Shown here: positions 7,167-62,100 of the stretch, piece after piece
Layout: each line of letters begins with the position of its first letter
Numbering within the stretch: position 1 is the first letter of the stretch
NCBI GenBank assembly: GCA_037367355.1
Contig: CM074697.1
Location: forward strand, 2,232,001-2,296,000
Origin: Neoscytalidium dimidiatum
Taxonomy: Eukaryota; Ascomycota; Dothideomycetes; Botryosphaeriales; Botryosphaeriaceae
Length of the DNA: 64,000 bases
Reading direction: 5' to 3'
Notes under the pieces: model-generated
What the model saw: the letters and a program-made list of their open reading frames with translations, nothing else
The model's database searches: none
What the model was told of the DNA's origin: nothing
Made by a program: the position numbers and the translations under genes

Positions 7167-8069
7167 TCAGCTCCACGTCGCATTATACGCGCGCACCTGC
7201 CCCTCCTGCCACGCCATCAGGGCCTCCCAATCGACGCACGAATGCACGACCCCCCAGCTCAAGCCGTCCTTCCAGTACTCCTCGGGGCTCCCCGGCGGCG
7301 AGTCGGTCTCGAACGCCATGTAATCGCCGCACGTGATGCTCAGCCGGAGGTACTCGAAGCAGTGCTCCAGGTGGGTGATCCAATCCTCGTCGATCGGGGT
7401 CGGCGCGAGCGGGTCGGTCGTCTCCGGGCGGTAGACGAGGGCGTTGTAGCGGATGCGGAGCATGTTGACGCAGTGCAGCTGGTGCAGGTTGTTGAGGACG
7501 TAGAAGTTGTTGATGTTGGGGAGGGCGGAGGCGGCCGCGGGCGGGTCGGCGAAGAGGAAGAAGGGCGCGTGGATGCCTGGGTCGTGGAGGCCGTAGCGGG
7601 ATGGGTCGGAGAGGTAGATCGAGTCGGAGCCTGGGTAGTCTCTGTCAGTAAGTCTTTTTTTTTTTCCCCCCCCTTTGAGGCCGGGAAGAGGGATCTTGCC
7701 TTCGGTCAGCTTGGCCCAGTTCTTATCGACTTCGTGGCCGGGGCCCATGTATTCCGGGTGTGGGCTGAAGGGGACGTCGTGGCGGTTGGTGAGGATTTCG
7801 CGCGGGATGGGGTTGTTGGGGTTGATGCCGAAGCTGGCGGCGGATTCTTCGCTCGCTGACTGACACCAGTAGCCGATCAGGACGCCGGCGCAGACGTTCA
7901 GGAGCGCAAAAGATGTGTAGAAGAAGATGTTGTGGGGGAGGCTGCTCTTGCGTGGTTTTGCGGGGGTGCGCTCTTCGTCTTGTGTCTTCTCGCCTGTCGG
8001 CAACAGGCTGTCCGCTTGCTCGATTTCTGCATAGTTTTGCTTTTCTTTGAAGAAATTGGTGAATTGCAT
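7167..8069 (-). CDS. UstYa-like (DUF3328) oxidase 1
   Basis: UstYa-family proteins are membrane-anchored oxidases that cross-link or cyclise fungal RiPP cores. This one has a cytosolic N-terminus, one TM helix (NIFFYTSFALLNVCAGVLIG) and a lumenal domain. Both diagnostic HxxHC motifs are present: HQLHC after NNL, and HLEHC before FEYLR. The first ATG (MQFTNFFKEK) is at 8069; the frame is open further upstream without an ATG. The frame is open throughout, but I infer a 60-bp GC-AG intron at 7640-7699 (donor G|GCAAGA, branch TACTGAC, acceptor ACAGAG). Splicing removes an odd Gly/Lys-rich insert and gives 280 residues with the junction LTE-DYPGSD. The second UstYa gene has an intron at the same place and phase. 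It shares a divergent promoter region with that gene. Confidence 0.87.
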   Translation of the reverse strand: MQFTNFFKEKQNYAEIEQADSLLPTGEKTQDEERTPAKPRKSSLPHNIFFYTSFALLNVCAGVLIGYWCQSASEESAASFGINPNNPIPREILTNRHDVPFSPHPEYMGPGHEVDKNWAKLTEGKIPLPGLKGGGKKKRLTDRDYPGSDSIYLSDPSRYGLHDPGIHAPFFLFADPPAAASALPNINNFYVLNNLHQLHCVNMLRIRYNALVYRPETTDPLAPTPIDEDWITHLEHCFEYLRLSITCGDYMAFETDSPPGSPEEYWKDGLSWGVVHSCVDWEALMAWQEGQVRAYNATWS

Positions 8070-8568
8070 TCTGAGATCGACAATTTTCAGACAATTGGTG
8101 AAAGAGGGGGATGTAGAGCAGCGCGAGAAGCTCAAGAGAACGGTGAAAAGCAGCGGGAATGAGCCAGATACCGGACGGAAGAATGATCGCAGCCGGGTGC
8201 AGCTGGATGCAGGGCATAGCTAATGCCACTATCGGTCGAATCCTACGCTGCACGAGCTCCGCTGCTGCTCTGCTTGTAGCAGAACGTTAAACCGCGCACC
8301 TCCCCGGCTTATCGCACATCCCCACGGCTGCTGGAGGCCAAAATGCCGGTGTCTGGGCGTGTGAGACAAACCAACACGTCCGGGCGCTGGCACGACTCAG
8401 CACAGTTGCGAGACGGCGCCGACGATCTAGATGTGGTGTTTGGTCGACGGGCGATTGCGAATACGGGGAGGCGTTTTTTGTGCATTGCATTGCATGTGCA
8501 GCGGCAGAGGCGAGCTGGGCTGGTAGGGATGACGATCCTGGGGCGGCCGGGAGTGGCTGGTCGGGGGG

Positions 8569-8609
<41 letters not shown>

Positions 8610-9086
8610 GGAGGATAAGCACCAAAGCTTGGGCCTGGAACTTTAGACCATCCTGTTGCCCCTTTCGGCATGCCCGAGTCAGCGTCAGACGGGCTGGCCT
8701 GCTACCCTGCCACCCTGCCACCCTGCGTCTCTGCCGCCCTGCAACCTTGCGACCCCGGCCCGACCGCCGGGTCAGCCCCGCGTGCTGACTTGGTAGCTGG
8801 CTATAGCACACCCATCTGCACCCCACCAACCAACGTGGCGCTGGCGGTCGATGCTGCGTCCGAAAATCCTGCATTAGGCAAATGAGGCAATTCGTCGCAG
8901 GACGCGCAGCCGGAGGATTGTGCACTCATGTCTGCCCCCACTGCTGCCAGCTCAAGCTCGGATGCGCGAGAGAAAAGTTGTCGGCTTTCAGGCACCTCTG
9001 CTCCCCCTTCCCGTGCACTGCAATCCAGTTCTCTCTGACCTTCGATTCCTCAGTCCTTTGTTTTTTCTGTGCCATTTTCAGCCGCA
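8070..9086. promoter_or_regulatory. divergent promoter region between UstYa 1 and UstYa 2
   Basis: The two UstYa genes point away from each other across about 1 kb, so this stretch should hold both promoters. It contains a pure GA microsatellite and a CCCTGCCA-type tandem stretch near 8703-8750. No binding site for a known regulator could be assigned. Open frames here are low-complexity artefacts. Confidence 0.5.
8571..8608. repeat. (GA)19 microsatellite
   Basis: Nineteen uninterrupted GA units lie in the divergent promoter between the first two UstYa genes. Such tracts vary in length and can exclude nucleosomes; an effect here is only a possibility. Confidence 0.95.
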
Positions 9087-9965
9087 ATGCTCAACAGCGC
9101 TGTCAATTCCAAGCACGAGTACCAGCAGGTTGCTCTGGACGAGGAAGCCGCCAAGGACGAAACCCGACGTTCGCAGCCGAGATCTCACACCATCTGGCAC
9201 TATGTCTGCATCTTCACACTGGCCCTGGGCTGGGCTGCGACGGTCGTCTACAGCTACCGCACGCAGCCGCGAGAAAACACCATGTTGCACGTCTACTCCA
9301 ACACGCCCATCCCGAGGGAAGTCTTCAACCCGGTGAAGAAGGTCTTTGACAAGGACCAGCGGTACATGGGCGACGGGCCGGAGGTGAACCACAATTGGGA
9401 CATGCTTGTTGCAGGTATGACTTCCGCAGAGTGGTAGGAAATGGCCCGTCAGTTGATATTGTTTCGCAGGCCACGACGCTGTGTGGATCGAGAACCCGTC
9501 TCGGTGGGGCCTACCCGAGGGCATCGTCGCTCCGTATGACCACCCGAACACGCCGGATCCAAAGCCCACCGACTTCTACGTGATTTCGATCCTGCATCAG
9601 CTGCACTGTTTGGTAGTCTTCCACATTCTCTTAGAGCCAAAACGCTTCTCAAATGCGCTAATGGCCCCCAGAACATGATCCGCTTCCAGTACTACCAGGA
9701 GAAGAACCGGGTCGACACGTCCGCCGACCCGGACGCGTTCAAGTGGAAGGTGCACGTCGAGCACTGCTTCGAGTACCTGCGCCAGGGCATCTCGTGCGGC
9801 GGCGACCTGATCATCGAGGGCAGCAGCCCGATCAAGGTCGGCAAGGGGCACGCGACGTCGGTGACGGGCTGGGGCGTCGAGCACGACTGCATCGACTTCG
9901 ACCGCCTGCGCCGCTTCCAGATCGAGCAGGAGGCCAAGTACAACGAGACCTGGCAGAAGGCGTGA
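9087..9965 (+). CDS. UstYa-like (DUF3328) oxidase 2
   Basis: The model has three exons (9087-9414, 9470-9612, 9672-9965), two GT-AG introns of 55 and 59 bp, and 254 residues. The start is the ATG of MLNSAVNSKH. A TM helix lies at about residues 37-56 (IWHYVCIFTLALGW). The lumenal domain has the usual NTPIPREVF block, then HQLHC (just before the second intron) and VEHCFEYLRQ, so both HxxHC copper-oxidase-type motifs are intact. The C-terminal block GWGVEHDCIDF is also characteristic. The expected role is oxidative cross-linking or cyclisation of the RiPP core in the secretory pathway. Its first intron matches the inferred GC-AG intron of UstYa 1 in place and phase, which suggests the two arose by inverted duplication. 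Confidence 0.92.
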
Positions 9966-10094
9966 AGAAGTAGAGAGAGACAGCGCTTAGATATATATAT
10001 ATATACACCACGTTCGAACAAATAGATCTTTGGAAAATTTCTGTACTTTTCTCAACTTCGTCCACCAAAGCGATCCCCGCCCAGGAAAAAACGC

Positions 10095-10808
10095 TCAAAG
10101 CCCGTACACGCCCAGATCCTCACCCATCCCCGGCCGCACCCACACCGCGCCCTCGACCCCGCCGAAGGCCCGCAGCGGCCGCACCCCGCGGTCCTCGAAC
10201 CCCAGGCTGCGGAACACCGCCCTCGACGCCTCGTTCGCCGGGTCGAACAGCCCCAGCACGTCGGCCACGCGCCGCTCGCGCCGATCCGCCCACCGCAGCA
10301 GCCCGGCCGCCGCCTCCCTCGCGTAGCCGCGCCGCGTGTGCGCCGGCAGGATCGCGAAGCCCAGGTCCGGCGCCGCGTACGCGTCGGGCGGGACGCCGCG
10401 CGAGAGCGAGACCGTGCCGATGGGCGTGCATTTGGCGAGCTCCTCGGCGAAGGGCCGGTGCTCGTCGTCGTCGTCGTCGTCGTCGTCGGGTGCCTCGTTG
10501 GTGTTTGCCGTGGTGGTGGTGGTGGTGGTGGTGGTGGTGGTGGTGCTGCTGCTGCTGCAAGCGTCGGGCTTGAGAGAGACGAGGTACGTGCCGTAGCCGT
10601 TGCGGGCGTGCTCGGCGACGAAGCGGTTCTCGATCAGCGCGCGGGCGGCGGCGGGCGTGGTGATGGAGGTGGGCTTGCCGCCGATGGAGGCGATGAACTC
10701 GGGGGTGTTGTAGAGGGCGACGATGAAGGCGGCGTGGGCCGGGTTGGTGGGCGAGAGGTGCGTGAGGTAGAGGCGGGGCGTGCTGATGTGGAAGTTTGGG
10801 TCTGTCAT
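10095..10808 (-). CDS. GNAT-family N-acetyltransferase (Acetyltransf_3 / RimJ-like)
   Basis: This is a single-exon gene of 237 residues. The N-terminal half (STPRLYLTHLSPTN, then FIVALYNTPEFIASIGG) and the motif A region with the acetyl-CoA loop (RRGYAREA, about residues 159-166) match the RimJ/RimL-type GNAT family. The C-terminal GLFDPANEASRAVFRSLGF block is the usual motif B. Between the halves is an insert of Ser4-Thr12 (about 85-100) and Asp8 (about 108-115), encoded by two microsatellites, which probably forms a flexible loop. No signal peptide is seen, so it should be cytosolic. It lies between UstYa 2 and UstYa 3; acetylation of the peptide product or a self-protection step is possible. 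It could also be an unrelated housekeeping GNAT caught inside the cluster. Confidence 0.85.
   Translation of the reverse strand: MTDPNFHISTPRLYLTHLSPTNPAHAAFIVALYNTPEFIASIGGKPTSITTPAAARALIENRFVAEHARNGYGTYLVSLKPDACSSSSTTTTTTTTTTTTANTNEAPDDDDDDDDEHRPFAEELAKCTPIGTVSLSRGVPPDAYAAPDLGFAILPAHTRRGYAREAAAGLLRWADRRERRVADVLGLFDPANEASRAVFRSLGFEDRGVRPLRAFGGVEGAVWVRPGMGEDLGVYGL
10461..10545. repeat. coding (CGT)n and (GGT)n trinucleotide repeats
   Basis: Two triplet tracts, about 10461-10488 and 10511-10545, lie inside the GNAT gene. On the minus strand they encode Asp8 and Thr12. Both have triplet periodicity, so length changes would keep the frame. Confidence 0.9.
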
Positions 10809-11101
10809 CTTGGAGCTTGACGTCTGTGGTCTGTTTTTCTTTTTTTTTCTTTTTTTTTTCTTATTGAGATGTGTGGAGAAGGGTTGCTGTGTGGGTGGAC
10901 TTGGGTGGATGGTTTCCCATTTATGTACAGCAGCTGCTGCGAGTCATGCTGTGTACACTGTGGCACAGTCGGGCAGTTACCCGGCGAGGCAAGCCACTTT
11001 CTCCCAGCGACAAGGTTGCATGCATGAAACGTTTTGGGGGGCCCGAATCCGCTCTCGATTTTCTATTCGCTACGATACATAATAAAAATTCCCTACTCGA
11101 C

Positions 11102-11972
11102 TCAGTCCTCGTGCTCCTCGTTGTCGAAGTGGTTCCGGTGCCCTGGCGTGTGCGTGACCTTGCCGCCGGTGTACCCCGACCCATTCACCTTGTCGGACCG
11201 GTGCTCGTAGGCCCAGCTGAACAGCCGCTCAAAGTCGCGGCACTGGTGCGTGGCGCCCATGCCGTTGATGCCCACCGTGGTCAGCGGCTCGAACGTCACG
11301 TCGCCGGCGCACATGATGGCCTGGCGGATGTAGTCCAGGCAGTGGTCGCGGTGGAACACGACCTCCTCGGGCGTCATGTCCGTCACGGCGTCCGGGTAGT
11401 AGGCGAAGCGCAGGAAGTTGAGGCAGTGCAACTGGTGGAACATGGACACGCCGTACACCTTGTGCGTGTCCGGGTTGTTCGGTGCGGGAAGCGAGGCGGG
11501 CAGGTTGGCCGTGAAGGCGTTGGGCACCTCCACGATGCCGTCGCCCGGTGGGGACAGCCGCTGCCACATCTCATCCGTCGCGTTGCTGGGTGCTCCCCCC
11601 ATGTATGCGTGCGGCTGGAAGGTGACTACGCTGTTGTACAGCACTGCGGATGGTCAGTGTATATTCCTGGAATCTGTGGGGAGGAGTCTCACGGTCTGGC
11701 TCGAAATGGTCCGTCTCGGGTTTGGTGTCGCAGCGCAGGCTCTTCAGAAGCACCAGGACGTGGCCCCAGACAGACAAGCCGCCGATGAAGAGGAGCACAT
11801 TGAACGTGAAAGCTGCGACCTTCCAATTCACCCAGCGGCCTGTCCTCTTGGGAATCTTGAACCCGTGCGCTTCGTCGAGCAGGAATTGCTTGTCGTCATC
11901 CATGCTGGTCGATGCGCTTGAGAGTTGTTCTTCCGATGAGACTCCGCCTTGCGCAGACTTGAATTTGTACAT
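11102..11972 (-). CDS. UstYa-like (DUF3328) oxidase 3
   Basis: The model has two exons (11693-11972 and 11102-11643) with a 49-bp GT-AG intron, giving 273 residues. The chosen start is the ATG of MYKFKSAQGG. A TM helix lies at about residues 51-74 (VAAFTFNVLLFIGGLSVWG). The lumenal part contains FHQLHCLNFLR and HRDHCLDYIRQ, the two HxxHC motifs, then a HQCRDFERLFSWAYEHR block typical of the family. Its intron lies between FEPD and LYNSVV, unlike the other two UstYa genes, so it is a more distant paralogue. It is divergent from the 2OG oxygenase. A separate oxidative step on the same peptide is the simplest role. Confidence 0.92.
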
Positions 11973-12715
11973 TGTGAAGGGGACAGAGAGAGAGAAGGGG
12001 GGGGGGGAGAGAGAGCGCGTGTGTACGGATGGAGAATTGAGAATGTCTGGAAAGAATTGGTAGACTACGTGTGGGAACGAAGAACAGCGGCAACAAATGA
12101 ATGCATTGTCCCAAAATAGCTTCATACCGCTGTCACGCACGGTGTCGGCCCCTCCGACTAGACGCGCCTTGCCACTTCAACGGTCATCCCACCGACATGC
12201 TCACGATTGCTCAAAGGGGAAGGCGGGGCTTGCAGGACCAACACTGAGCTCGCAGGATCAAGATGCATGCGTCTATCCACCTTAGCGCTGAGAATAACTA
12301 GGGGAGCGAGTAATACAGCAGCATTATTTCGGGAGAAAAGCGATTCGCGGAGAGGGTCAACTCCGGACTACCCGATTAGGCAGGTGTGGGGGCGGCGAAT
12401 CGAGCCCGTGCCCCGGCGTCAGCCCCCAGGACACGGTCCGGAATTGCGATCCTTCAGCTCCACAACCGGCGATCTCGTTGGCACCGGCGTCGTAAGCAGG
12501 GTCCTTGCGGCTGCGGGTGGCTGCCTGCATGCACATCCTCGCTGAACAGAGTCTAGATGTATGCACGCATTTATGCTCGCATGTGCAAGAACTCGTGGAG
12601 CATCCAGGATATGAGGACCACTCCGCTCCCCTCTCGACACCACGCAATTCCAGCTTGGAACTCCAGTCCCAACCTCAATCTTGTTCAGCATCTTTCCTCT
12701 ACAGTAGTCGTTGCA
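11973..12715. promoter_or_regulatory. divergent promoter region, UstYa 3 / 2OG oxygenase
   Basis: The two start codons lie 743 bp apart and point away from each other, so both promoters must be here. A purine-rich GA/G tract (about 11985-12014) falls in the UstYa 3 leader. No specific operator could be identified. Confidence 0.5.
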
Positions 12716-13636
12716 ATGGCCTCTCCAAAGCCTACGCTTGCCTCCAAGACCAAATCGTCCAAGCTGACGACCGCGGCAGCAGTGCTGCTCCCGCTGCTCC
12801 CCTTCGGCTTCCTCCAATGGCAGCACATCAGCTCCAAATTCGGCATCCGCACCGCCGACATCACCATGCCTTCATTCTCCTCAGCCACCACCGCCTCCTC
12901 CTCCTCCTCCAACGACACCTTCACCGCCATGGCCGCGCAGTACGCCGCGGCCTGCCCCCAGCACAGCATCAACCCGCACATCTTCAGCACCGACCCGCTC
13001 ATCATCTACATTGCCGATTACCTCACGCCGGCTGAGACCTCCTACCTGCTGAACCTCGCGGCCCCCTACTACCGCCAATCGCCCGTCTCGAAGGGCTACG
13101 CCCTCGAGACGTACGACCGCGAGATCCGCAGCTCCATGTCGGCCGTCGTGCCGGACGACCCGGTCGTGTCGTGCATCGAGCAGCGCAGCGTCGACTTCCA
13201 GGGCTACGTCCCCAAGGACCGCCTCGAGGACGTCCAGGTGGTCAAGTACGGCCCGAGCGACCACTTCCGCCCGCACTTCGACTGGTTCGCCGGCATGGCC
13301 AACCCGCGCGTGAGCACCTTCTTCGTGTACCTGGCCTGCGACGACGGCGACACGGGCGCGGGCGGGTGCGAGGGCGGCGCGACCCAGTTCCCGCACTACG
13401 AGGGAAGGTTCCCGGCGCGGTGGTGCGGCTGGGTGGACTGCGAGGACGATTCCGGCGTCGGCGGCGTGGCGTTCGCGCCCAAGGTGGGCAACGCCGTGTT
13501 TTGGGAGAACCTGTATCCGAACGGCACGGGGCATCCGGGCGTGTGGCATGCGGGGATGCCGGTCAAGAAGGGCAGGAAGGTTGGGCTGAACATCTTCACT
13601 AGGCGGGATAGGTGGGTGCCGGAGCAGCAGTCGTGA
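12716..13636 (+). CDS. 2OG-Fe(II) oxygenase, prolyl-4-hydroxylase-like, membrane-anchored
   Basis: This is a single-exon gene of 306 residues. A basic N-terminus and hydrophobic segment (about 17-34, LTTAAAVLLPLLPFGFL) suggest a type II signal anchor, putting the catalytic domain in the same lumen as the UstYa domains. The prolyl-4-hydroxylase fold is marked by YGPSDHFRPHFDWF (Fe ligands His187 and Asp189), the distal His278 in GVWHAGMPVKKG, and Lys288 ten residues later as the probable 2-oxoglutarate ligand. All key residues are present. An earlier in-frame ATG exists, but the ATG at 12716 (MASPKPTLAS) starts right before the membrane segment. It is divergently paired with UstYa 3. The likely role is hydroxylation of the RiPP precursor or product; Pro in the invariant APA before each core is one possible site. 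Confidence 0.9.
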   Translation: MASPKPTLASKTKSSKLTTAAAVLLPLLPFGFLQWQHISSKFGIRTADITMPSFSSATTASSSSSNDTFTAMAAQYAAACPQHSINPHIFSTDPLIIYIADYLTPAETSYLLNLAAPYYRQSPVSKGYALETYDREIRSSMSAVVPDDPVVSCIEQRSVDFQGYVPKDRLEDVQVVKYGPSDHFRPHFDWFAGMANPRVSTFFVYLACDDGDTGAGGCEGGATQFPHYEGRFPARWCGWVDCEDDSGVGGVAFAPKVGNAVFWENLYPNGTGHPGVWHAGMPVKKGRKVGLNIFTRRDRWVPEQQS

Positions 13637-13708
13637 TTGAAAATTTTTATTCTCTGTCTGGAGTTTTGTATAGATTCGATGCAATGACAACTGAACGATT
13701 TACCATAC

Positions 13709-13739
<31 letters not shown>

Positions 13740-15676
13740 AAAGGTTGCGTGCCGTGAAATTTTGAAGGTCCGACAGTCCCTTTACCCAGCGAGTACATCC
13801 TCCATCATATCACTTCGAGCAGTAGTTATTCCCTGGGTCTAGCGAAACGTCATTTTCTACGTGCCAAAATTGATCATGCATTGCAATTCCATACTCAACT
13901 GTGCACTCGGATTCTGGACTCGATTAACACCAGGAAATAGCCATCTTCCTCCCATCATCGCAATTCGCAGGACGACTAAGGAAGGCATCAAGAGATGAAT
14001 CTTGAGTGAAAAGTTTGGAATGACGATGAGCCCGAACATTGCGAACCGGAGCCAACAGCCGTCGCACTGGCGCGGCCGACTCAGTCACTACCCGGCAACG
14101 ACTTTTTTGCAGGGAAAATTCGCAAGCTCCAACACCAACACGAAGCGAAGCACGAGGCAGCTTTGACTTGAGCTACCTTTCCAACTACCATTAGCACGAT
14201 TCACTTGAATCTCCGTAGCATGAATCTTTTCGTGACGAGTTCCTTGTCTACTGACAATAGGTGCCAACGCCACCAACTCACTACCCAGATCGACCGTGCG
14301 CAATGGCAAGTCATCCATCAACCATAAACCAGCAGATCTCAACGCTAGCGGTGCCCATCGCGGGGACTCGTATAGGATGACATGCCTGCCACATAAGGTG
14401 TTGGTTAATTTCTTATCGCGAACAAGCACGTCTAGTGTCTCCCATCTCTAGCGCTGACAGCGAACGACGGGGTCCAAGCTCCCCTTGCAGCTGTGGCCGA
14501 CCAGGATGTGCATCCCTCAGCCGCACAACAGGCACCGACCGCTCTCTACCCCGTCTCGGTTCGGCCCCTCCGGCACGCTGCTGCGTGCGGAGGAGCCTCA
14601 GTCGCCACCACCGTTCGGCCCGTGTCAGCGCATACCTGCATACACCGTGCGCTCTAGACACTTACTCGCTGAATTGGCACACTACAGACCGCTAAAATGC
14701 TGTGGGGGCTGAAGGATCAGAAAATCGACTGTTTCACCGGCCAGCCAGCCGCAACCGGTATTTTGCGGCCAATCGGCGCACATCACTTCCATTGCCTCTT
14801 TTGGAAATGCGTGATAGCGCTGATGTGGAGCCGGGAAAACAACGCAACGCGCGCCGGCCGCTGCCCGTCAGATTTTTCACCGTGCAATTCTCCTGCCTAC
14901 CACCGATCAATGAGAGCTATTGTTGCTGCGGAGGCAAGGATCAGCATTCAGCTGTCTGTGTATTGCTCCGGACGTGCGGCTTACTCTCCGCGCCAGCGCC
15001 GTCAACCACGCCGGCTAACCCGTCCCACTTCTCCACGAAGGATCACAAGCCAGTGCAAGAGAATCGTTGACCGTTCTCTCTGCTGCTGGGAATAGATGGA
15101 GTAATCCTCCATACTTGCCCAATCAGGAAATTCATTCCCCGGCGCTGGTCGAGCCCCGTTTCAGGAACGGCTACTTCACTTCAAGCCACCAACAACATCC
15201 GCGCAATTTCTTTCATATCTGATGCAACATCGGACCAAATATCTGCTTATTGTCTCTCGGAATGTCAGTATCAGGAAGGTGAGACAACGATCTGTGCCAG
15301 AGCCTGGACATCCATGACCTTCGGCAACGACAGCAAGCCCGCTATTCGCATCAGCGGGCTAAGTGGGTACTCTGAACGCATCCGAAGGAATTTCGGCAGT
15401 CATGACGGACACAAGTCAAGCCCACTGTGATCGCCCTGACGGGCATTGGTAGTATAAAGGATCGCAGGAAGGCCCCGTTCCATCAGACCATCACTTCAGC
15501 ATCACTCCACCAGCTCTCCAGCTCGAAGCCTCCCAGCACCAGCCCTCGTAATCACCAGTACGTCCCAGCACCCCTCCAAACACAGAAAGTCGAACCAACG
15601 AACTGACCCTAACCCCACAGCACCAACCACACCAAACACCTCAACCCCAGCAAACCCCCATACACCGCCATCAACA
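13637..15676. other. intergenic, no gene seen
   Basis: This 2 kb stretch separates the 2OG oxygenase from the precursor gene. It begins with a T27 tract at 13709-13735. Frames in 14.4-15.1 kb are short, Arg/Pro/Ser-rich and lack family features. The last 230 bp form the precursor's promoter and leader. Confidence 0.6.
15453..15620 (+). promoter_or_regulatory. TATA-like box and possible 5'UTR intron of the RiPP precursor
   Basis: A TATAAA string at 15453-15458 lies 219 bp before the precursor ATG. The pyrimidine/CA-rich leader that follows contains a possible 63-bp intron at 15558-15620, with donor GTACGT, branch CCTAAC and acceptor CACAG. Inference only. Confidence 0.4.
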
Positions 15677-16465
15677 ATGAAGCTCACCACCGCCGCCGCC
15701 CTCTCCGCCCTCACGGCCTCCGCCTTCGCGGCCGCCATCATCGACCCCAAGCAGTCCGCCCCGGTCATCGAGGTCGCCGACAAGCGCGCCGCCGAGGCCG
15801 ACCCGGCCGAAGCCGCCCCGGCGTACGTGTGGGCCTCCGCGGGCAAGAAGAGGGAGGCGGACGCGGAGCCGGTCGAGGCTGCCCCCGCCTACGTCTGGGC
15901 CAGCGCGGGCAAGAAGCGCGAGGCCGAAGCCGCCGAAGCCGCGCCCGCTTACGTTTGGGCTTCTGCCGGGAAGAAGCGCGAGGCGGCGGACCCCGCCGAG
16001 GCCGCGCCGGCCTACGTGTGGGCCAGCGCTGGCAAGAAGCGCGAGGCCGATCCCGCTGAAGCGGCTCCCGCCTACGTCTGGGCCTCCGCGGGAAAGAAGC
16101 GTGAGGCCGACGCCGAGGCCGTCGACGCCTCTCCGGCTCACGGCAAGAGCAAGCGCGATGCCGAAGCCGGCGAGGCTGCCCCGGCTTACGTCTGGGCGTC
16201 GGCGGGCAAGAAGCGCGAGGCGGAGGCTGCTGAAGCCGCTCCCGCTTATGTTTGGGCTTCTGCCGGCAAGAAGCGCGAGGCTGAGGCGGCAGAGGCCGCC
16301 CCTGCTTACGTCTGGGCCAGCGCGGGGAAGAAGAGGGAGGCGGATGCTGAGCCTGCTGAGGCTGCGCCTGCCTATGTGTGGGCTTCCGCTGGTAAGAAGA
16401 GGGAGGCTGAGCCAGCTGAGGAGGCGCCGGCTTATGTCTGGGCTAGTGCGGGGAAGAAGCATTAG
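15677..16465 (+). CDS. Kexin-processed RiPP (dikaritin-type) precursor, ten YVWASAG cores
   Basis: This is a single-exon gene of 262 residues. A secretion signal (MKLTTAAALSALTASAFA) and a short pro-region end in DKR at residue 37. Eleven units follow. Ten contain the invariant 12-mer APAYVWASAGKK; Tyr lies at residues 50, 72, 92, 113, 133, 171, 191, 211, 233 and 253. Unit six is degenerate (SPAHGKSKR). Nine intact cores end in KKR and the last in KKH then stop. Spacers are acidic EA/DA/EP-rich dipeptides of varying length, like the Ste13-type spacers of kexin-processed peptides. Kex2-type cutting after KKR and basic-residue trimming would release ten identical peptides. Tyr and Trp are plausible targets of the adjacent UstYa oxidases. 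The layout matches the known ustiloxin, phomopsin and asperipin precursors; I do not recognise this core. Confidence 0.92.
   Translation: MKLTTAAALSALTASAFAAAIIDPKQSAPVIEVADKRAAEADPAEAAPAYVWASAGKKREADAEPVEAAPAYVWASAGKKREAEAAEAAPAYVWASAGKKREAADPAEAAPAYVWASAGKKREADPAEAAPAYVWASAGKKREADAEAVDASPAHGKSKRDAEAGEAAPAYVWASAGKKREAEAAEAAPAYVWASAGKKREAEAAEAAPAYVWASAGKKREADAEPAEAAPAYVWASAGKKREAEPAEEAPAYVWASAGKKH
15788..16462 (+). repeat. eleven-unit tandem coding repeat of the precursor (54-66 bp units)
   Basis: Units vary by whole codons (18-22 residues). The core-encoding DNA differs widely at synonymous sites: Ser of the core is TCC, AGC, TCT, AGC, TCC, TCG, TCT, AGC, TCC and AGT in order, while the protein is identical. 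Units seven to nine are closest to one another. Confidence 0.9.
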
Positions 16466-17005: not shown

Positions 17006-18036
17006 CTACTTCAGCGGCACCAGCTCAATCAACCTACTCCTCAACAACCCCTCCACCAGCTCACAAATCTTCGTCGCAAGCACATAGTCCACCATTACAG
17101 GCTCGAACGCCGGGCTCCCCGGGAAACTGTACGGCTCCCCAAACGCGGTGTACCCAGCCCGCCACCCCGTGCGCCCATCCGCTCGCGGAAACTCCTTCTC
17201 CATCGGCATCAACCCCGTATAGCGCTTCTCGACGCCAGGCTCGGTCGTCGGCGCGCCGGCGCAGGTGCGAGCGCTTTCTCCCGCAGAGATGCAGCCGAAG
17301 GCGTGGCGCAGCGGCGTATGCCTGGTGGCGTTGCAGGTGCCCGCCGTGCAGGCGGCCGGGTCGGCGTAGTCGGAGGGTTGGGGGCGCGCCGAGGGCGGCG
17401 CACTTGGCGGAGTTGCGCGGCGAGCAGGTCGTCACCGTGCGCCAGCCGGAGAGGCGGGCGAACTGCAGCGCGAAGAGGCCGGCGGCGGTGCTGCCGCCGT
17501 AGACGAGGAGTGTGGGGCGGTCGATATGTTGGTTGCTGTTGGAGAGGGCAGGGGGTGGTTGAGCGTCTGGTAGAGCCCTGGTGGGATTGAACGGTCAGAG
17601 ATGCATTGCTGGTTCAAACGATGCGGGTCGTTCATGTGTGTATATACATACCTTGATCGATCGTCGCGATGCCTACGCCTTGCGTCGCGGCCTCGGTATC
17701 ACTGATATTCTCGGGTATGCGCAATGCCAACCTCTCTTTCACCAAGCAACACTCGGCGAAGGCGCCGCTCTTCGGGTGTCCGATAAACAAGACCGCAATG
17801 CAATCAGCTGGAGCGAAGGGTCTTGTCACCGCAGTGCCGACCTCCACGACTCGTCCGCTCAGATCGCAGCCAACAGTGTGAGGGACATCGCCGGGGCTTG
17901 CAGATCCCATGTGCCAGTCTGACGGACTCAGTGCGACATGCGAGACTTTCACGAGGAGGTATTCTGATTGCAACTCGGGGATTGAGGCCGAGTTATCGAC
18001 GAAGGTGTTGGCCCAGTGGGTTTTGACAGCGCGCAT
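17006..18036 (-). pseudogene. trans-enoyl-reductase / zinc-binding dehydrogenase-like (ToxD family), frameshifted
   Basis: Exon 1 (17652-18036) encodes the GroES-like N-terminus: VALSPSDWHMG, VGCDLSGRVVEVGTAV and GAFAECCLVKERLALRIPENIS. A 74-bp GT-AG intron follows, then GLYQTLNHPLPSP. After that the family sequence continues in a second frame (DRPTLLVYGGSTAAGLFALQFARLSGW, the NADPH-binding Rossmann segment), then in a third (SDYADPAACTAG through to LIELVPLK and stop). Two single-base frame changes are therefore needed, one near 17530-17545 and one near 17375-17385 at a C5 run. ToxD-like proteins are medium-chain reductases of about 350 residues, often in polyketide clusters. I infer a pseudogene; assembly errors in GC-rich runs are the alternative. 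Direct involvement in the RiPP cluster is doubtful. Confidence 0.7.
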
Positions 18037-19420
18037 GGTAGAAACTTCCAGAATTGGTGATATATTCTACTGAGGGGTGTTCGTTGACCGAGATCATAAA
18101 ATAGTCTTCTCTAGTCTACAGCTAGAATCTACGTGATGCGGCGTAGGGAAGGTAAGTCCGTCAACTAGCTCCAGATGTTTGTCTAAAGATCTACTAAATC
18201 CAAGCCTCGAAGGCATTGCGGAGACTAACCAGTCAGTTTGTGACAAGATATTGATCGGGATGTTCAATCCCGGTGCTTACGTGGGGGCCAAGTGATGTAC
18301 GCTTTGTTACACTACGACAGTGACCTGAAGCGCAGCTGAATCCAAATACTACGCTAGAGATTGGATAGGTCGTTAATGACCCAAATACGAGCTGTCATAG
18401 CTTCACGTATACTTATTATCAGAGGTCAATTTAGCTGCGTACAAGCTGAGCTAAAATACAAACAAGGGATACCTTTTCCACTCCCCTCTACAGTGCCTAA
18501 ATTCCACTCCTACTTTTGCACCATCGCTGAACCTCAAAAGAAAGCCATCATAAAGCCTGCCCTTACTTATTTCCTCGGCTCTCTCACCTACTGACCCGTC
18601 ATCTCCTCTTTGAATATCATTGCCACCATTTTCCAAATAATATCCATCCTCTGTGGTATTAGTACGCTACGGCGGTGATAATCACATATAATAGCGCTAT
18701 AAAGATACCACCATCCCTCGCATTGGTTAAGATCCTCATCAAGAGAGATGGTCTGTATCATAGCAAGGCTAGCATAGTGTTCTTCACCATAGAAAAAAAA
18801 AAAGACTTCACAATAGCCTTCAACTACTACATATTCGTCCTTGGTAGCATGAACATCTCCACGTCCGACTATATCGTACTGCCAAACGGACAAGATCAAG
18901 CCCAACGTATTCTACAACGCTTTTACAGAGACGGATAGCATCTAGCGTGGAGTAAGACCCACTTCGCCCCCAAGCAACAGAGTAAGCAAACGATTGCCTT
19001 CGAGTACGGTCATTAAGGTTCGCCCCTTGCAATCTATCTGCAAAATTCATGCCCATTTCCACGGAAATCGTGATTTGTGACACGTTTCTTTAGTATACAG
19101 AATAAAGAGACATACAGCTCTTCCACACAGTCCGTTTTCCATAGCTTGTCTGTTCCTTCTCTTAAGGCACAGTTGTCGAGGAACAATAACTGATGCTCTA
19201 CTGCCTATTTGCTACTATATTAACGTTGCAGTACATCCAAAATCGACCTGATGCGTAGACTTGGCCGATTTCTAAGCACCCAGATCAAGATTCTCGTTAC
19301 AGTCTTGACCAGACCTGCATCCAAGAAAAGGGGACTGTTGAACACAGATTTTTGGAAATTTCATGATCAAAAAGACTGTATACAGTTACGACGACGGTGT
19401 GTAAAAAAGACTACAACAAG
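18037..19420. other. intergenic, possible decayed sequence
   Basis: Both strands carry short frames (for example around 18588-19083) rich in Tyr, Ile and Ser, broken by stops and AT-rich. It looks like a decayed element or gene, but no family could be recognised. Confidence 0.4.
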
Positions 19421-56777: not shown

Positions 56778-58518
56778 ATGCTTCAGCTTGTCCTCTGTCA
56801 CCCGTATGCCGCATTCGCGGCGGTAACTCTGCTCTACTTCCTAGGTCTTGCAATATATCGTCTCTACTTCAGTCCAGTCGCAGGATTTCCCGGGCCTAAA
56901 CTTGCTGCGCTGACACGGTTTTATGAGTATTACTACGACGGCATGAAAGGAGGCAAATTTGTTTGGAAGGTCAAAGATCTGCACGAAGAGTATGGTATGT
57001 GCATGTTCTAACTCTTTAGTTGTCTAGAAAGTACTAAAGTGGATTTAAGGTCCGATTGTGCGTATTGGGCCGTGCGAATTGCACGTAAACGACCCCACCT
57101 TCGTCAACACCCTGTACCCCGCGACCGGCCAGAAACGCAACAAAGACGCTTTCTGGACGAACCAATTTGGCCCAAAGACAGCATTTGGGACTGTTGATCA
57201 CGATCACCACCGCCTGCGCCGAGGTCCGTTCAATCGTTTCTTCTCCAAAGCCAATGTCACTCGGCTGGAGCCGATGCTGCGGCAGCAGGCAAATAAGCTG
57301 TGTGAGAAGCTGGAGAAGTATGCCGATACGGGAAAACCAATAGACCTTAGCGATCCCTTTGGCTGCATGGCCACAGACATCATCTCTACGTACGCTCTGG
57401 GATACAGCTTTAACTTCCTGGACGCAGAGGACTTTCAGCCAAATCTTCTGCAAGGCCTCAACGGGTTCACAGCCCTAGCCCCCACGGTCAAGCAGTTTCC
57501 CTGGCTTCTGAAATTTCTGCGAGCCCTCCCCGACAGTTGGGCTCTCAAGATGAACCCTAAAATTGCGCCTTTCCTGGATTTCCAGCGAACGATGAGAAAG
57601 GTCATTACCGACGTGGAGGCGGAAGTACGCAATGATGCTGGCGAGAAGAATGACAGCCGGGCTACCACGATCTTCCACGAGGTGCTCCGCGGCGACACTC
57701 CTCCGGAGGAAAAGGACACAGCGCGGTTGTGGCAGGAGGGAGAGGCAATCATTGGCGCTGGTACGTTCCGCTCTAACAAATTATGTTCTAGCATTTTGGG
57801 CTCACCAATTTGGCATGACGCAGCCACAGAAACAACAACATGGGCCTTTGAGGTCACCATGTTCTACCTGCTATCGCAGCGTTCTATACTGGACAAGCTC
57901 CGCGCCGAACTGCAGAAGATCATGCCCGACCCGCAAGATATCCCGTCCTGGGTCACACTCGAGAAGAATCCATACCTGTCGGCCGTCATTGCCGAGGGCC
58001 TGCGCCTGAGCTACGGCTTAGGCACCCGTGCCGCGCGCATCTCACCCGACGGACCTATGCACTACCGCAGCGCGGATGGAAGTCATGAAGCTGTCATACC
58101 CGTCGGCGTCCCCGTCGGTATGACGCCCGTGTTGGTGCACCACAATGAAGATCTCTTCCCGGATTCGTACCGCTTCATCCCGGAACGCTGGCTGGATGAG
58201 AAGGGCCAGCGGAGGAAAGACCTCGACGGCTATATGCTCAGCTTTAACAAGGGGAGCAGGCTATGTTTGGGGGTCAAGTAAGTTCTAATCGATATTACGG
58301 CCCGACTTGACCTGAGACCTGGCTAACCATCGTCATCATCTAGCCTCGCTTATGCAGAGTTATTCATCACGGTGGCTGCCGTCGTGCGTCGCTTAGGGAC
58401 CCGAATGGACCTGTACGAGACCGATATCTCTGACGTCCGCGTGACACGCGTCTTCTTTGTCCCTAAGCCGAAAGAGGATTCGAAAGGTGTCAGGGTCACT
58501 ATCAGGGGCAGCCAGTGA
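56778..58518 (+). CDS. Cytochrome P450 monooxygenase
   Basis: Four exons (56778-56994, 57050-57760, 57824-58277, 58344-58518) join in frame into 518 residues. An N-terminal TM anchor (YAAFAAVTLLYFLGLAIY) and proline hinge FPGPKLAA indicate an ER membrane protein. The I-helix reads GAATETTTWAFEV, ExxR is EGLR, the PERF-like region is FIPERW, and the heme loop is FNKGSRLCLGVN with the Cys ligand, the final Asn codon being split by the last intron. All signature residues are kept. It resembles fungal cluster P450s of the trichodiene-oxygenase-like group. Convergent with the PKS across 595 bp. The expected role is hydroxylation or epoxidation of the polyketide product; the substrate is unknown. 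Confidence 0.92.
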
Positions 58519-59113
58519 CCGATTTCGATCATCCCATTTCCGAAGGTACGACTGAAGGCATGATTCAGGCTGGTAGTCAGTTGTGGGGGATTACAGCACA
58601 ATCGAGACCCAGCGTAGAAGCAAGCGTATTTATAATCTATCTCTCCGGTCTTTCCGGTTCTAAATTTCTTTTTTTTGAAAAAAGTAAAGAAACTTATCAA
58701 TTTCTATTTTTGAAATTTTTTTCTGACCTAACATCAAGTGCACGTGTAGCCTTATTAATGACTCTGAATTACATACTCCTGCAGAATTGGCGTAGAAACA
58801 GCTGCGTAGAGCTTCTTGGGGTAGTACATTTTGAGCATAATTCGCCTCCTGATATCTTTTGGACTCCAGTTGCTTCGTCCAAGTAGATCATATCTCCTAG
58901 GAAAGCACTCGATAACAGACGTGCCCAACAACCTTGACAACCACATTCACATAATTTCACGCTATTTTCTACTTTTAAGGACCGAAAGCAATACGGCCTA
59001 CCCGTGACACACGATATTGTCTGACCACTTGCTGAACGATAGAGTCAACATCCCACGTAGAAGCACTGGTAGAATTCGAGCAAGCAAGACTTTGCCCTAC
59101 TACTTAGAGACTC
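58519..59113. other. intergenic between convergent P450 and NR-PKS
   Basis: This is the shared 3' region of the two genes. No frame with family features is seen. Confidence 0.6.
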
Positions 59114-62100
59114 CTAATTCATAGCCAGAATCCACCGAAAAAGACTGGACTCGGGAGACCCGTCGTCCGTCCAATCCACATGGCGAAAGCCGGCGTCCAG
59201 CAGGCACGCTTCCCACCGCCGCTCATCCACCAATGGGTACGCTCGGCCGTCGGAGAAGCGCCACCAGCCGTCGAGGAGACCGAAGACGCAGTCCAGCCAG
59301 GCCAGCGGGCGCGTCAGCTCCAGGAGGCACAGCGCCCCGCCATCCGGCCGCAGCAGGCGCTGGGCGTTGGCGCAAGACTCGCGTAGGTTCTTTGTCGCGT
59401 GGATGACGTTGGATGCAACAACGAGGTCGTACGACTGTCGCATGCGCGCCGGCGGCGGCTGCTCAATGTCGAGCACCGCAAACTCCATGGCACAGCGGTC
59501 GCGAGCGTCAGCGTAGCGGGCCTCGAGCTTGCGCCTGGCGCTGGCGACCAGCGAGGACGAGATGTCCGTGAAGGTGTAGGTGAAGGTAGCTTTGCTCGCC
59601 ACGAGCGTGTCCATGAGCTGCTGCGTGGTGGCATCTGTTCCCGCGCCGATCTCCAGGATGCGGAGCCGTCCGGAGGAGCTGGTCATGCGTGTGAGCCGGC
59701 CTACAACCTCACAGACCATCTTCGTCGCCGTAGAGAACATAGGGCTGTTGACATAAAAATCCTCCAAAAGCTGTCGGGAGGTCTGGCTGTGGAAGAGCAG
59801 CTGCAACGGATCTTTGTTGCCCGACAAGCACTCGGCAAGATGCGGGCCAGTTGCAGAGAGCAGCAAGTGATCCGGCCGATAGGCCGGGAAATCTGCTAGA
59901 ATCTCTCGGTGGAGGTCCGCCGATCCAGCCTGATGCAGAGGCTTGGTTGTCCGAAGGAAATTGTTCGGGTGATCGTCCGAATGGGAGATCAGTCCTGCAT
60001 CTTCCAAAAGCTGGTGGTATCGAAGCGCTAGCTTCTGGTACCGGGCGGCGTAAGGAGTTGATGGAAGCTGCTCACCCGCTTTCAGCATTGTCAAGTCGCA
60101 GCCAAGGTTCCTGAATGCCTCGACGATGTATGCCACTGTCAGCGATTGTTGCCTTTGGTATACGTCTGGGTAGAAGCCGGCAAAGCCTGTTTGTCGGGCA
60201 AAGACGCTATATTCCTGCTTGACGCTGTCAAATTCTGACTTGAGAGCACCCTTAGGTTGGAAGTAAGACGTTTTGCTCGTTTCGAGAGGGCTGTTTGTGA
60301 ATGATTTTCTCTCGCTCATCTCTCCGGGTTTGGACAAATTACCACCAATGATGGCCTGGCAGAGGTCTGAAAAGGTGGTATTTTCGTCTACCTTTACGGA
60401 GGAAGACTCCTTTCCAAATCTGCTCTCTATCTCTGATTCGAGCTGAATAGCGAGTAATGAGTCCAGTCCCAGGAGAGATAGAGGTGTTTCCGGTGGTATC
60501 GCTGGCGAGCAGTTCAAATGTTCAGCGAGCAACTTTGCTAAGTCCATAATGATATGCTCGTGCTCTCGCACCTCTGACGGGTGTTGTCCAGAGGAGGGGA
60601 TGGACTCAGAGACACTGTTGCCATCCGGAGTTAGTTGCGGCATGCCACTGAGTCTTAAATGTATCTCTTGACACAGTCTCCCGAAAGTCATGCCTTGCTC
60701 GCAAACTTTTCCAATAGTGAGTTCGACATGAAGCACATCTTGGATTCTCGCTTGAAGCTCAGTTGCCATCAAAGAATCCACGCCGAAGTCACCGAGAAGG
60801 GTGTCATCCTTGATAGTTTCGCGTAGAACTCCCGTTGTCTCAACGATGAGGCTCTCGGTGATACCTTTAACCTCAAGAAGTGAGATCATGCTCGTTGCAT
60901 CTGACGAAGATGATTCATGAGGCTGAATCGGCATTGATGTTATCTTGGGATCATGTGGTTCATTGGTGATTGCGGAATGATCCGTTGCGACCTTCTCGTG
61001 CATTTTGGAAAAGCCATTCGCTGCCTGTAAGGCCTTTTGTAAAGAACGGATGGGTACTTTCGAGAACTTCACCCCCAAAAGAGCCAGGGAAAGTGTATTC
61101 TGGTCCTCGGGGAGTACAAAGACATCGCCGACGAAGACTTTGTCGCTCTCCCGTTCCAATTTTGAGTATACCGTAAACGGCCCTTGTGAGTTTCCATGAT
61201 TGCTAGTATGAACAATCACTTCATCAAGTCCATTGCAGACAAACATTTGGTCGCTCGTATACTCCTCCAAGTTGCCAGCATGTATCTCTGCTACTAACAG
61301 AAAATTGTCGAGAAGAGGCGGATTGAGCCTTGTTTCAAAATGATGTTGGGACGCAATTGTCGGCATGTCTACATTTCCGACCGCCTCGAGACCCTTCGAT
61401 ATGATAGAGCGGATTCCAAAGTAGCTGTCATCGTAGCTCACCATTCGGCCCAAGATTTTCTTCACAAAGGCTCCCCGCACAATCGACGCGCGGGGATCCT
61501 CGCGTATCGTCTGACACCGCTCGTGGTCAATCAGACGGTGTAGTGGCAGATATTGTCGAGCTAAGGAAGCGCCCTGCTCCTGGAATCTGATTGTCCCGGA
61601 AGCTTGAAGCTGGAAGGCCTGATCTTTATCTACACCGTGTGCCCGACTATCGATGATAAATTCCCAGGCCGATCCGGTATGCCTCCGCAGCCTTAGGCGA
61701 AGATGTCGGCTGGGGTCAAAGCCCAAGGGAGCGTAAAGCTGGATCTGTTCAAACTGTGGGAGAGGCGCAGATGGACTCGCAGGCAACGTGCGCAGGAGAC
61801 TAAGGGCACGAATAACTGACTCGAGATACACCGACGGGGGGCTGAGGGTGTGCCCAAGAACGGTTCTTCCTCTAACGAGGAAAGAATATTCTTTGCTAGA
61901 CTGGTTGATTGAAAACTCTGCCGTCTCTGGATCAGCACCGCCATGAGATCGGACCAACGACACTAGTTGCGGAGGCGCATCGGCCACCTGCTGCTGCTGC
62001 TGATGATGATGATGTGCCGCCGCATCGTGATCATTGACAAACGGTAGCCAGTGGTCGGTCGTTTCGAACTGGTATGGAGGCAGTTCCAAAGGTCGGAAGC

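What the first reader, a model, noticed from the sequence alone, without database searches (positions are those of the whole stretch)
7167..16465. Candidate new fungal RiPP (dikaritin-type) cluster
In 9.3 kb there are three UstYa-family oxidases with all six HxxHC motifs intact, a membrane-anchored 2OG oxygenase, a GNAT enzyme and a secreted precursor with ten KKR-type-flanked cores. Known dikaritin pathways (ustiloxin, phomopsin, asperipin) share the precursor plus UstYa logic. The core YVWASAG is not one I recognise, and three UstYa plus a P4H-like enzyme is an unusual tailoring set.
Basis: partly seen in the sequence, partly recalled or inferred. Interest (0 to 1): 0.93.

Follow-up and report, generated by a model that had tools for sequence, protein, structure and literature searches.

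The report
Twice-kept fungal YVW peptide gene cluster
A fungus carries two diverged copies of one six-gene set that encodes a repeated short peptide (ten and twenty-eight copies of PAYVWAS) beside three UstYa-family oxidases, a prolyl-4-hydroxylase-like enzyme and an acetyltransferase, and that is predicted to make a new small peptide with a likely tyrosine-to-tryptophan cross-link.

The parts
7167..8069 (-). UstYa-family oxidase A (277 aa), exons 8069-7700 and 7630-7167 (GC-AG intron assumed), one predicted TM segment, HQLHC and HLEHC
   Evidence: PF11807 E 8.2e-23; model and paralogue cA at 60.4% identity; motifs and hydropathy
9087..9965 (+). UstYa-family oxidase B (254 aa), exons 9087-9414, 9470-9612, 9672-9965, HQLHC and HVEHC
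   Evidence: PF11807 on the last exon, E 1.2e-17; paralogue cB 62.8% with introns at the same places to within one base
10095..10808 (-). GNAT N-acetyltransferase (237 aa), single exon, no clear TM segment; carries Thr- and Asp-rich low-complexity stretches that the paralogue lacks
   Evidence: PF13302 E 1.4e-17; paralogue cC 62.4%, dN/dS about 0.15; hydropathy
11102..11972 (-). UstYa-family oxidase D (273 aa), exons 11972-11693 and 11643-11102, HQLHC and HRDHC
   Evidence: PF11807 E 6.2e-32; paralogue cD 66.3%
12716..13636 (+). Membrane-anchored prolyl-4-hydroxylase-like 2OG-Fe(II) oxygenase (306 aa); H187, H278 and K288 invariant and D189 nearly invariant in 31 aligned sequences
15677..16465 (+). 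Secreted Kex2-processed repeat precursor (262 aa): N-terminal signal-like segment, ten PAYVWASAG cores, one degenerate unit
   Evidence: paralogous precursor on contig C4
15818..16453 (+). Array of ten PAYVWASAG cores, 60-66 bases apart (once 114, over the degenerate unit); ten different nucleotide sequences encoding one amino-acid sequence

Best explanation
A six-gene unit, present twice in this fungal genome, encodes a secreted precursor with ten PAYVWASAG cores plus its enzymes, and is predicted to work as a dikaritin-like RiPP pathway in which Kex2 would cut the cores free and the UstYa copper oxidases would likely cross-link Tyr to Trp. Steps. Shown by sequence: signal-like N-terminus, a KR before each of the ten cores, invariant PAYVWAS, intact HxxHC(x)nHxxHC motifs, intact H-x-D...H...K of a prolyl-4-hydroxylase fold (metal and 2OG roles of these residues recalled). 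Inferred: (1) in the secretory pathway Kex2 cuts after KR and Kex1 trims the C-terminal lysines; (2) dipeptidyl aminopeptidases trim the acidic spacer in steps of two, since the spacer to Tyr is even in 39 of 41 units of three precursors; (3) the prolyl-4-hydroxylase-like enzyme hydroxylates the proline two residues before Tyr, which is kept in 42 of 42 units, so the mature peptide either keeps Hyp-Ala or uses it as a processing mark; (4) one or more UstYa enzymes form an oxidative bond between the side chains of Tyr and the Trp two residues on (the spacing of the Tyr-Ile ether of ustiloxin and phomopsin), the others adding a further oxidation; (5) the GNAT acetylates the peptide or protects the producer. 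Biological role: either a toxin-like or a self-signalling peptide; undecided.
For: Whole-unit paralogue on C4 2256495-2265552 with the same order and orientation; pairwise identities 60.4, 62.8, 62.4, 66.3, 61.5% for the five enzymes, with synonymous sites saturated in four of five pairs (dS 2.4 in the GNAT pair); tblastn of 147 window ORFs of at least 100 aa (1-40000) against 40 kb of C4: 17 of the 52 ORFs that overlap the unit match, 0 of 95 flank ORFs. Cores: 10 of 10 and 28 of 28 PAYVWAS; 10 and 25 distinct nucleotide versions. Pseudogymnoascus P0040: residues 8-83 match the 2OG enzyme at 66%, residues 176-297 are a PAYVWAT precursor with four cores. The two paralogues are old: N. parvum has both 2OG types, P0002 (77-78% to the window copy) and P0014 (82% to the C4 copy, grouped 100/100 in the tree). 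P4H fold match. DUF3328 proteins as copper enzymes, one a hydroxylase and one a cyclase: PMC12435403 (abstract and passages). Definition of dikaritins as Kex2-repeat precursors cyclised by UstYa: PMC10512285 (passages).
Against: No expression, peptide or chemical data. UstYa proteins also hydroxylate, halogenate or dehydrogenate (PMC12435403, PMC10512285 passages), so a cross-link is not assured; Trp is not enriched in UstYa-linked precursors (20.5% versus 24.5%, PMC7329392 section 7). No tyrosinase, S41 peptidase, transporter or regulator in the unit, though ustiloxin and phomopsin clusters have the first two. The precursor search found no homologue, and the one with the paralogue found a single one, P0040, so the link between core and enzymes outside this genome rests on one gene model, and only for the 2OG gene. 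The first P0040 core has no KR before it. If the product starts at Tyr, a hydroxylated Pro would be cut off, which sits badly with step 3. In-phase spacer dipeptides are xA/xP in only 39 of 48, 79 of 133 and 5 of 18, so pure STE13 trimming is not met.
Confidence: 0.74

Rival explanations
1. The precursor releases unmodified linear signalling peptides, like an alpha-pheromone, and the UstYa genes are bystanders.
For: Every fragment after KR/RR begins x-Ala, the STE13 signature, in both precursors of this genome: 11 of 11 and 29 of 29. PMC6339444 (passages) ties that signature to pheromone-like hormones and says that it is absent from the precursors of the toxic cyclic peptides.
Against: The Pseudogymnoascus precursor lacks the signature: its four fragments start DT, DT, DT and EN. 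Spacers here are 53% and 32% Ala, so the signature is partly composition. Dothideomycete alpha-pheromones have a Cys pair or PYGxPxG (PMC6339444 section 8 passages); the core has neither. All but three of the annotated pheromone precursors have no UstYa neighbour (PMC7329392 abstract passage). Three UstYa genes stay with the precursor in both diverged copies.
Confidence: 0.08
2. A UstYa-modified peptide hormone for the fungus's own sexual or developmental programme, rather than a toxin. The chemistry is as in the best explanation; only the role differs.
For: x-Ala starts in this genome; conservation of the core between two old paralogues and in another class; POI2 of Neurospora, an ustiloxin-type precursor, is needed for perithecial development (PMC7329392 section 9 passage); a UstYa cluster is up in Sordaria protoperithecia against a sterile mutant and UstYa genes differ between Podospora mating types (both as told in PMC5006380 passages).
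Against: No expression data here. P0040 has no x-Ala starts. UstYa genes are also induced in infected banana leaf (PMC5006380), and PMC6339444 (sections 10, 17) says of its conserved motifs as a group that many are in pathogens.
Confidence: 0.4
3. The UstYa enzymes only hydroxylate or dehydrogenate the core; no Tyr-Trp bond forms and the product stays linear.
For: CctR is a C-H hydroxylase and phomopsin UstYa proteins also desaturate residues (PMC12435403, PMC10512285 passages).
Against: Tyr, Val and Trp are kept in 42 of 42 units and the Y-x-W spacing equals the cross-linked Y-x-I of ustiloxin and phomopsin; with three UstYa paralogues at least one cyclase is likely (inference).
Confidence: 0.22
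4. The GNAT and 2OG genes are unrelated neighbours.
For: GNAT enzymes are common (recalled) and both substrates are unknown.
Against: Both lie at the same place and strand in both copies, at identities like those of the UstYa genes, while no flanking ORF tested is shared; 2OG and precursor appear adjacent in Pseudogymnoascus too.
Confidence: 0.04

Closest known systems
Ustiloxin and phomopsin clusters (dikaritins)
   Same: Signal peptide plus tandem cores with KR sites; several UstYa proteins in the cluster; Tyr followed two residues later by the partner residue
   Different: Core Y-V-W rather than Y-x-I; no tyrosinase, S41 peptidase, methyltransferase, P450 or FMO in the unit; adds a prolyl-4-hydroxylase-like enzyme and a GNAT; spacers have STE13-like x-Ala starts (features of the known clusters from PMC6514808, PMC6941272 and PMC6339444 passages)
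Asperipin-2a cluster
   Same: Small cluster, no tyrosinase or peptidase, UstYa cyclase, aromatic-rich core
   Different: Four genes with one UstYa, a transporter and a reductase; core FYYTGY (PMC6514808 passage)
YVW[G/A][G/S] Kex2-repeat proteins (motif 4 of Le Marquer et al. 2019)
   Same: Same core motif; the window core YVWAS fits it
   Different: Reported as conserved secreted peptides; no enzymes around them are described in what I read (PMC6339444 sections 10 and 17 whole, passages of others; figures and supplements not seen)
Lichen RiPP clan R2
   Same: UstYa with GNAT genes
   Different: One UstYa and several GNAT copies; the words prolyl, hydroxylase and 2OG do not occur in the main text (PMC12048977 passages)
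Algal and collagen prolyl 4-hydroxylases (2jig, 3gze, 7zsc)
   Same: Fold and Fe/2OG residues of the oxygenase
   Different: Membrane-anchored fungal protein in a RiPP unit; 26-31% identity over the aligned residues; substrate unknown

Membership tests
Dikaritins (Kex2-repeat precursor cyclised by UstYa; definition in PMC10512285 passage) | Precursor with N-terminal signal peptide and tandem cores between Kex2 sites | tested here: met
   Ten cores and a KR before each; the signal segment is judged by hydropathy only (KD19 1.68 at residue 4)
Dikaritins | UstYa (DUF3328) homologue in the cluster with HxxHC(x)nHxxHC | tested here: met
   Three genes, PF11807, 6 of 6 motifs
Dikaritins | Tyr or Phe in the core as cross-link site | tested here: met
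   Tyr in 10 of 10 cores
Dikaritins | UstYa-dependent cyclisation of the product | not testable with these tools
   Needs peptide chemistry or gene removal
Ustiloxin/phomopsin subgroup | Tyrosinase and S41 peptidase in the cluster | tested here: not met
   Neither family in the eight ORFs of the unit nor in the 12 flank ORFs scanned; not every gene of the window was scanned
Ustiloxin/phomopsin subgroup | Core Y-x-I | tested here: not met
   Core is Y-V-W in all 38 units of this genome's two precursors
Ascomycete alpha-pheromones | Core with a conserved Cys pair or PYGxPxG | tested here: not met
   PAYVWASAG against the motifs given in PMC6339444 section 8 (passages)
Ascomycete alpha-pheromones | STE13 signature after Kex2 site | tested here: met
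   11 of 11 and 29 of 29 fragments start x-Ala in this genome; 0 of 4 in P0040
Prolyl 4-hydroxylases | Double-stranded beta-helix with H-x-D...H and a 2OG-binding Lys | tested here: met
Prolyl 4-hydroxylases | Hydroxylates peptidyl proline | not testable with these tools
   Only a kept Pro at -2 of Tyr is seen, 38 of 38 and 4 of 4 in P0040

The most novel reading that the evidence does not exclude
An ancient, widely kept family of fungal RiPPs, distinct from the known dikaritins: three copper UstYa oxidases weld Tyr to Trp in a Y-V-W core and a collagen-type prolyl 4-hydroxylase marks the proline in front of it, giving a Hyp-Ala-[Tyr-Val-Trp]-Ala-Ser macrocyclic peptide used as a fungal hormone, with two paralogous versions (ASAG and ASKG) in one genome.
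Probability: 0.22. Interest if true: 0.85.

Novelty: new variant of a known kind. Interest (0 to 1): 0.62.

Why it matters
It attaches a defined enzyme set to a conserved secreted peptide (YVW motif) that has been in print since 2019 and for which I found no described maturation. It also points to a prolyl-4-hydroxylase in a UstYa pathway, which I did not find described. Only five dikaritins had been reported by 2022 (PMC10512285 passage). A Tyr-Trp bond by a copper UstYa enzyme would, as far as I saw, be new chemistry and is directly testable. Two diverged copies in one genome also give a natural experiment on core change (A to K) with matched enzyme change.

Tried and rejected
Precursor homologue search with the window precursor: 7998 candidates scored, none at E <= 0.001; Ala-rich words probably drew the wrong candidates. 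Repeated with 400 aa of the paralogue at E <= 10: one hit, P0040, at 2.7e-7.

Shuffle control of the precursor: most frequent 7-mer 10 times against at most 7 in 2000 shuffles. It is a poor control because Ala runs make overlapping 7-mers, and is not used as evidence.

pN in the cores came out at 0.056 and 0.046 although the window amino acids are identical and only one of the 28 C4 cores differs; this is mostly an artefact of TCN-to-AGY serine changes counted stepwise. I use the amino-acid counts instead.

AlphaFold of the UstYa D exon with a two-row alignment: pLDDT 42, discarded. PDB sequence search with a UstYa exon failed on frame and was not repeated.

dN/dS between the two clusters is not usable except for the GNAT pair, because dS is saturated.

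Literature, ten searches: 'YVWAS' 0 papers; 'YVWG' with 'Kex2' 0, though PMC6339444 prints the motif with brackets; 'UstYa' alone 508, the 40 listed mostly the author name Ustyantsev; DUF3328 with acetyltransferase 6, passages read in PMC5006380, PMC12048977 and PMC6941272, listing only for the other three; DUF3328 with prolyl 8, 7 listed, the prolyl passages read in PMC9233826, PMC9002641 and PMC10512285, other passages in PMC6514808, listing only for the other three; a mixed search, 52 papers, 40 listed. None that I saw describes this gene set. Only open-licence PMC texts are held; figures (such as Fig. 9 of PMC5006380 with UstYa clusters), supplements, and Nagano et al. 2016 on Aspergillus, were not seen.

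The parity of spacer lengths (39 of 41 even) may reflect duplication of dipeptide codon pairs rather than selection; the units are not independent, so the binomial value printed there is not a probability I rely on.
Full report
WHERE. The window is contig C3:2232001-2296000 of a 43.76-Mb, 40-contig genome. The oxygenase is 86% identical to a Lasiodiplodia hormozganensis protein and 77% to one of Neofusicoccum parvum, both Botryosphaeriaceae, Dothideomycetes, so the fungus is likely of that family; no name is given by any search.

WHAT IS THERE. Six genes fill 7167-16465. On the minus strand: UstYa A (7167-8069), GNAT (10095-10808), UstYa D (11102-11972). On the plus strand: UstYa B (9087-9965), the 2OG oxygenase (12716-13636) and the precursor (15677-16465). 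Pfam assigns the five enzymes. Splicing gives clean frames and all six HxxHC motifs. The intron of A is of the GC-AG kind if it is placed by homology with the paralogue; this is an assumption. The precursor starts with a hydrophobic segment and then holds ten PAYVWASAG cores, each in a fragment that follows a KR site, with short acidic Ala-rich spacers.

A SECOND COPY. A search of the same genome with the precursor found a second precursor on contig C4; its model has 627 aa and 28 PAYVWASK[G/E] cores, one of them ending KE. A PF11807 search listed 20 exon matches, which I group into 13 UstYa genes; three lie beside the second precursor. Reading that region gave UstYa(-), UstYa(+), GNAT(-), UstYa(-), 2OG(+), precursor(+), the order and strands of the window. 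Identities are 60.4, 62.8, 62.4, 66.3 and 61.5% for the five enzymes, in the order A, B, GNAT, D, 2OG; UstYa genes within a cluster share only 26-36%. Introns of UstYa B lie at the same places to within one base; the C4 copy has one more intron in A, in D and in the 2OG gene. Of 147 window ORFs of at least 100 aa (positions 1-40000), 17 of the 52 that overlap the unit match C4 and 0 of the 95 outside do; the matched stretch on C4 is 2256498-2265492. The unit therefore has sharp borders and has stayed whole while synonymous sites became saturated in four of five gene pairs (dS 2.4 in the GNAT pair). The ADH-like gene at 17.6-18.1 kb and the ORFs left of 7.1 kb are outside it.

SELECTION ON THE CORE. 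The ten window cores are ten different DNA sequences and the 28 C4 cores are 25, with up to five codons per residue, yet PAYVWAS is unchanged in 38 of 38. Spacers vary in sequence and length (8 distinct of 10; 17 distinct of 28). The shared unit of the two paralogues is PAYVWASx, and Pseudogymnoascus has P[A/V]YVWATP.

OUTSIDE THIS GENOME. The one precursor relative found, P0040 of Pseudogymnoascus sp. VKM F-4246 (Leotiomycetes), looks like a wrongly merged gene model: residues 8-83 match the 2OG oxygenase at 66% and residues 176-297 are a signal-like segment with four PAYVWAT/PVYVWAT units, each before EKR; the first has no KR in front. Such a fusion arises when two genes on one strand are neighbours, as 2OG and precursor are here; I could not fetch its contig. 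The 2OG tree of 38 rows (P0040 and three rows shorter than 190 aa left out) groups the C4 copy with N. parvum P0014 (100/100) and puts the window copy with Lasiodiplodia P0001 and an unnamed P0027 (100/99); N. parvum P0002 is of the window type by identity but stands unresolved in the tree. Both types in N. parvum mean that the duplication, or a second acquisition, predates the split of these genera. Homologues of the oxygenase also occur in Cercospora, Aspergillus, Penicillium, Podospora, Microdochium and Rhypophila; whether they have the whole unit I could not test.

PROCESSING. In this genome every fragment after KR/RR starts x-Ala (11 of 11, 29 of 29); in P0040 none of four does. The distance from cut to Tyr is even in 39 of 41 units of the three precursors. 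This fits dipeptide-wise trimming down to Tyr, but only 39 of 48, 79 of 133 and 5 of 18 in-phase dipeptides are xA or xP, so a broader dipeptidyl peptidase or another enzyme would be needed.

USTYA CHEMISTRY. CctR, a DUF3328 protein, is a dimeric membrane enzyme with two coppers bound by HxxHC(x)nHxxHC, needing O2 and electrons; AprY, a cyclase, is likewise copper-dependent (PMC12435403, abstract and passages). In ustiloxins and phomopsins UstYa-type enzymes join the N-terminal Tyr to an internal Ile (PMC9233826 section 9 passages). With Trp in the place of that Ile, a Tyr-Trp bond is the natural prediction here; it is not shown.

WHAT IS KNOWN. The core motif YVW[G/A][G/S] was reported among conserved Kex2-repeat proteins of Pezizomycotina (PMC6339444, section 10 read whole), without enzymes in what I read. 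UstYa genes accompany 22% of 7878 such precursors (PMC7329392, section 7 read whole). GNAT with UstYa is described in a lichen cluster type (PMC12048977 passages). I found no report of a prolyl-4-hydroxylase with UstYa. I therefore rate it a new variant of a known kind.

ROLE. Undecided. Conservation of the core and the x-Ala starts of this genome lean to a signalling peptide; the company that UstYa precursors keep (ustiloxin, phomopsin, victorin) leans to a toxin. No expression data were available.

Noticed in passing
L013 1731-2426 (-), C7:2576731-2577426: Another Kex2-repeat precursor with eight VQ[Y/F][W/G][D/N]K units, within 10 kb of UstYa matches at C7:2579814-2585547.
   Followed up: no
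L015 2042-2710 (+), C3:1441042-1441710: Third kind of precursor: seven units DRKV[I/V]AAPES[L/I]PDSDAILPYKEKR, about 2 kb from a UstYa gene at C3:1443545-1443903.
   Followed up: no
window 57049-64000: Cytochrome P450 and a polyketide synthase with methyltransferase domain that runs off the window edge; a separate biosynthetic locus.
   Followed up: partly
window 17006-18066 (-): Alcohol-dehydrogenase-like gene: ADH_N at 17632-18066, further pieces at 17006-17594 judged by eye in several frames; its ORFs have no match in the C4 region, so it lies outside the unit; gene structure not worked out.
   Followed up: no
window genes 7167-13636 versus C4 genes: Third-position GC of the five enzymes is 0.86-0.95 in the window copy and 0.53-0.59 in the C4 copy; cause unknown.
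   Followed up: no
window 10460-10560: The window GNAT has long Thr and Asp codon runs, absent from its paralogue, that may make the assembly or the protein variable there.
   Followed up: no
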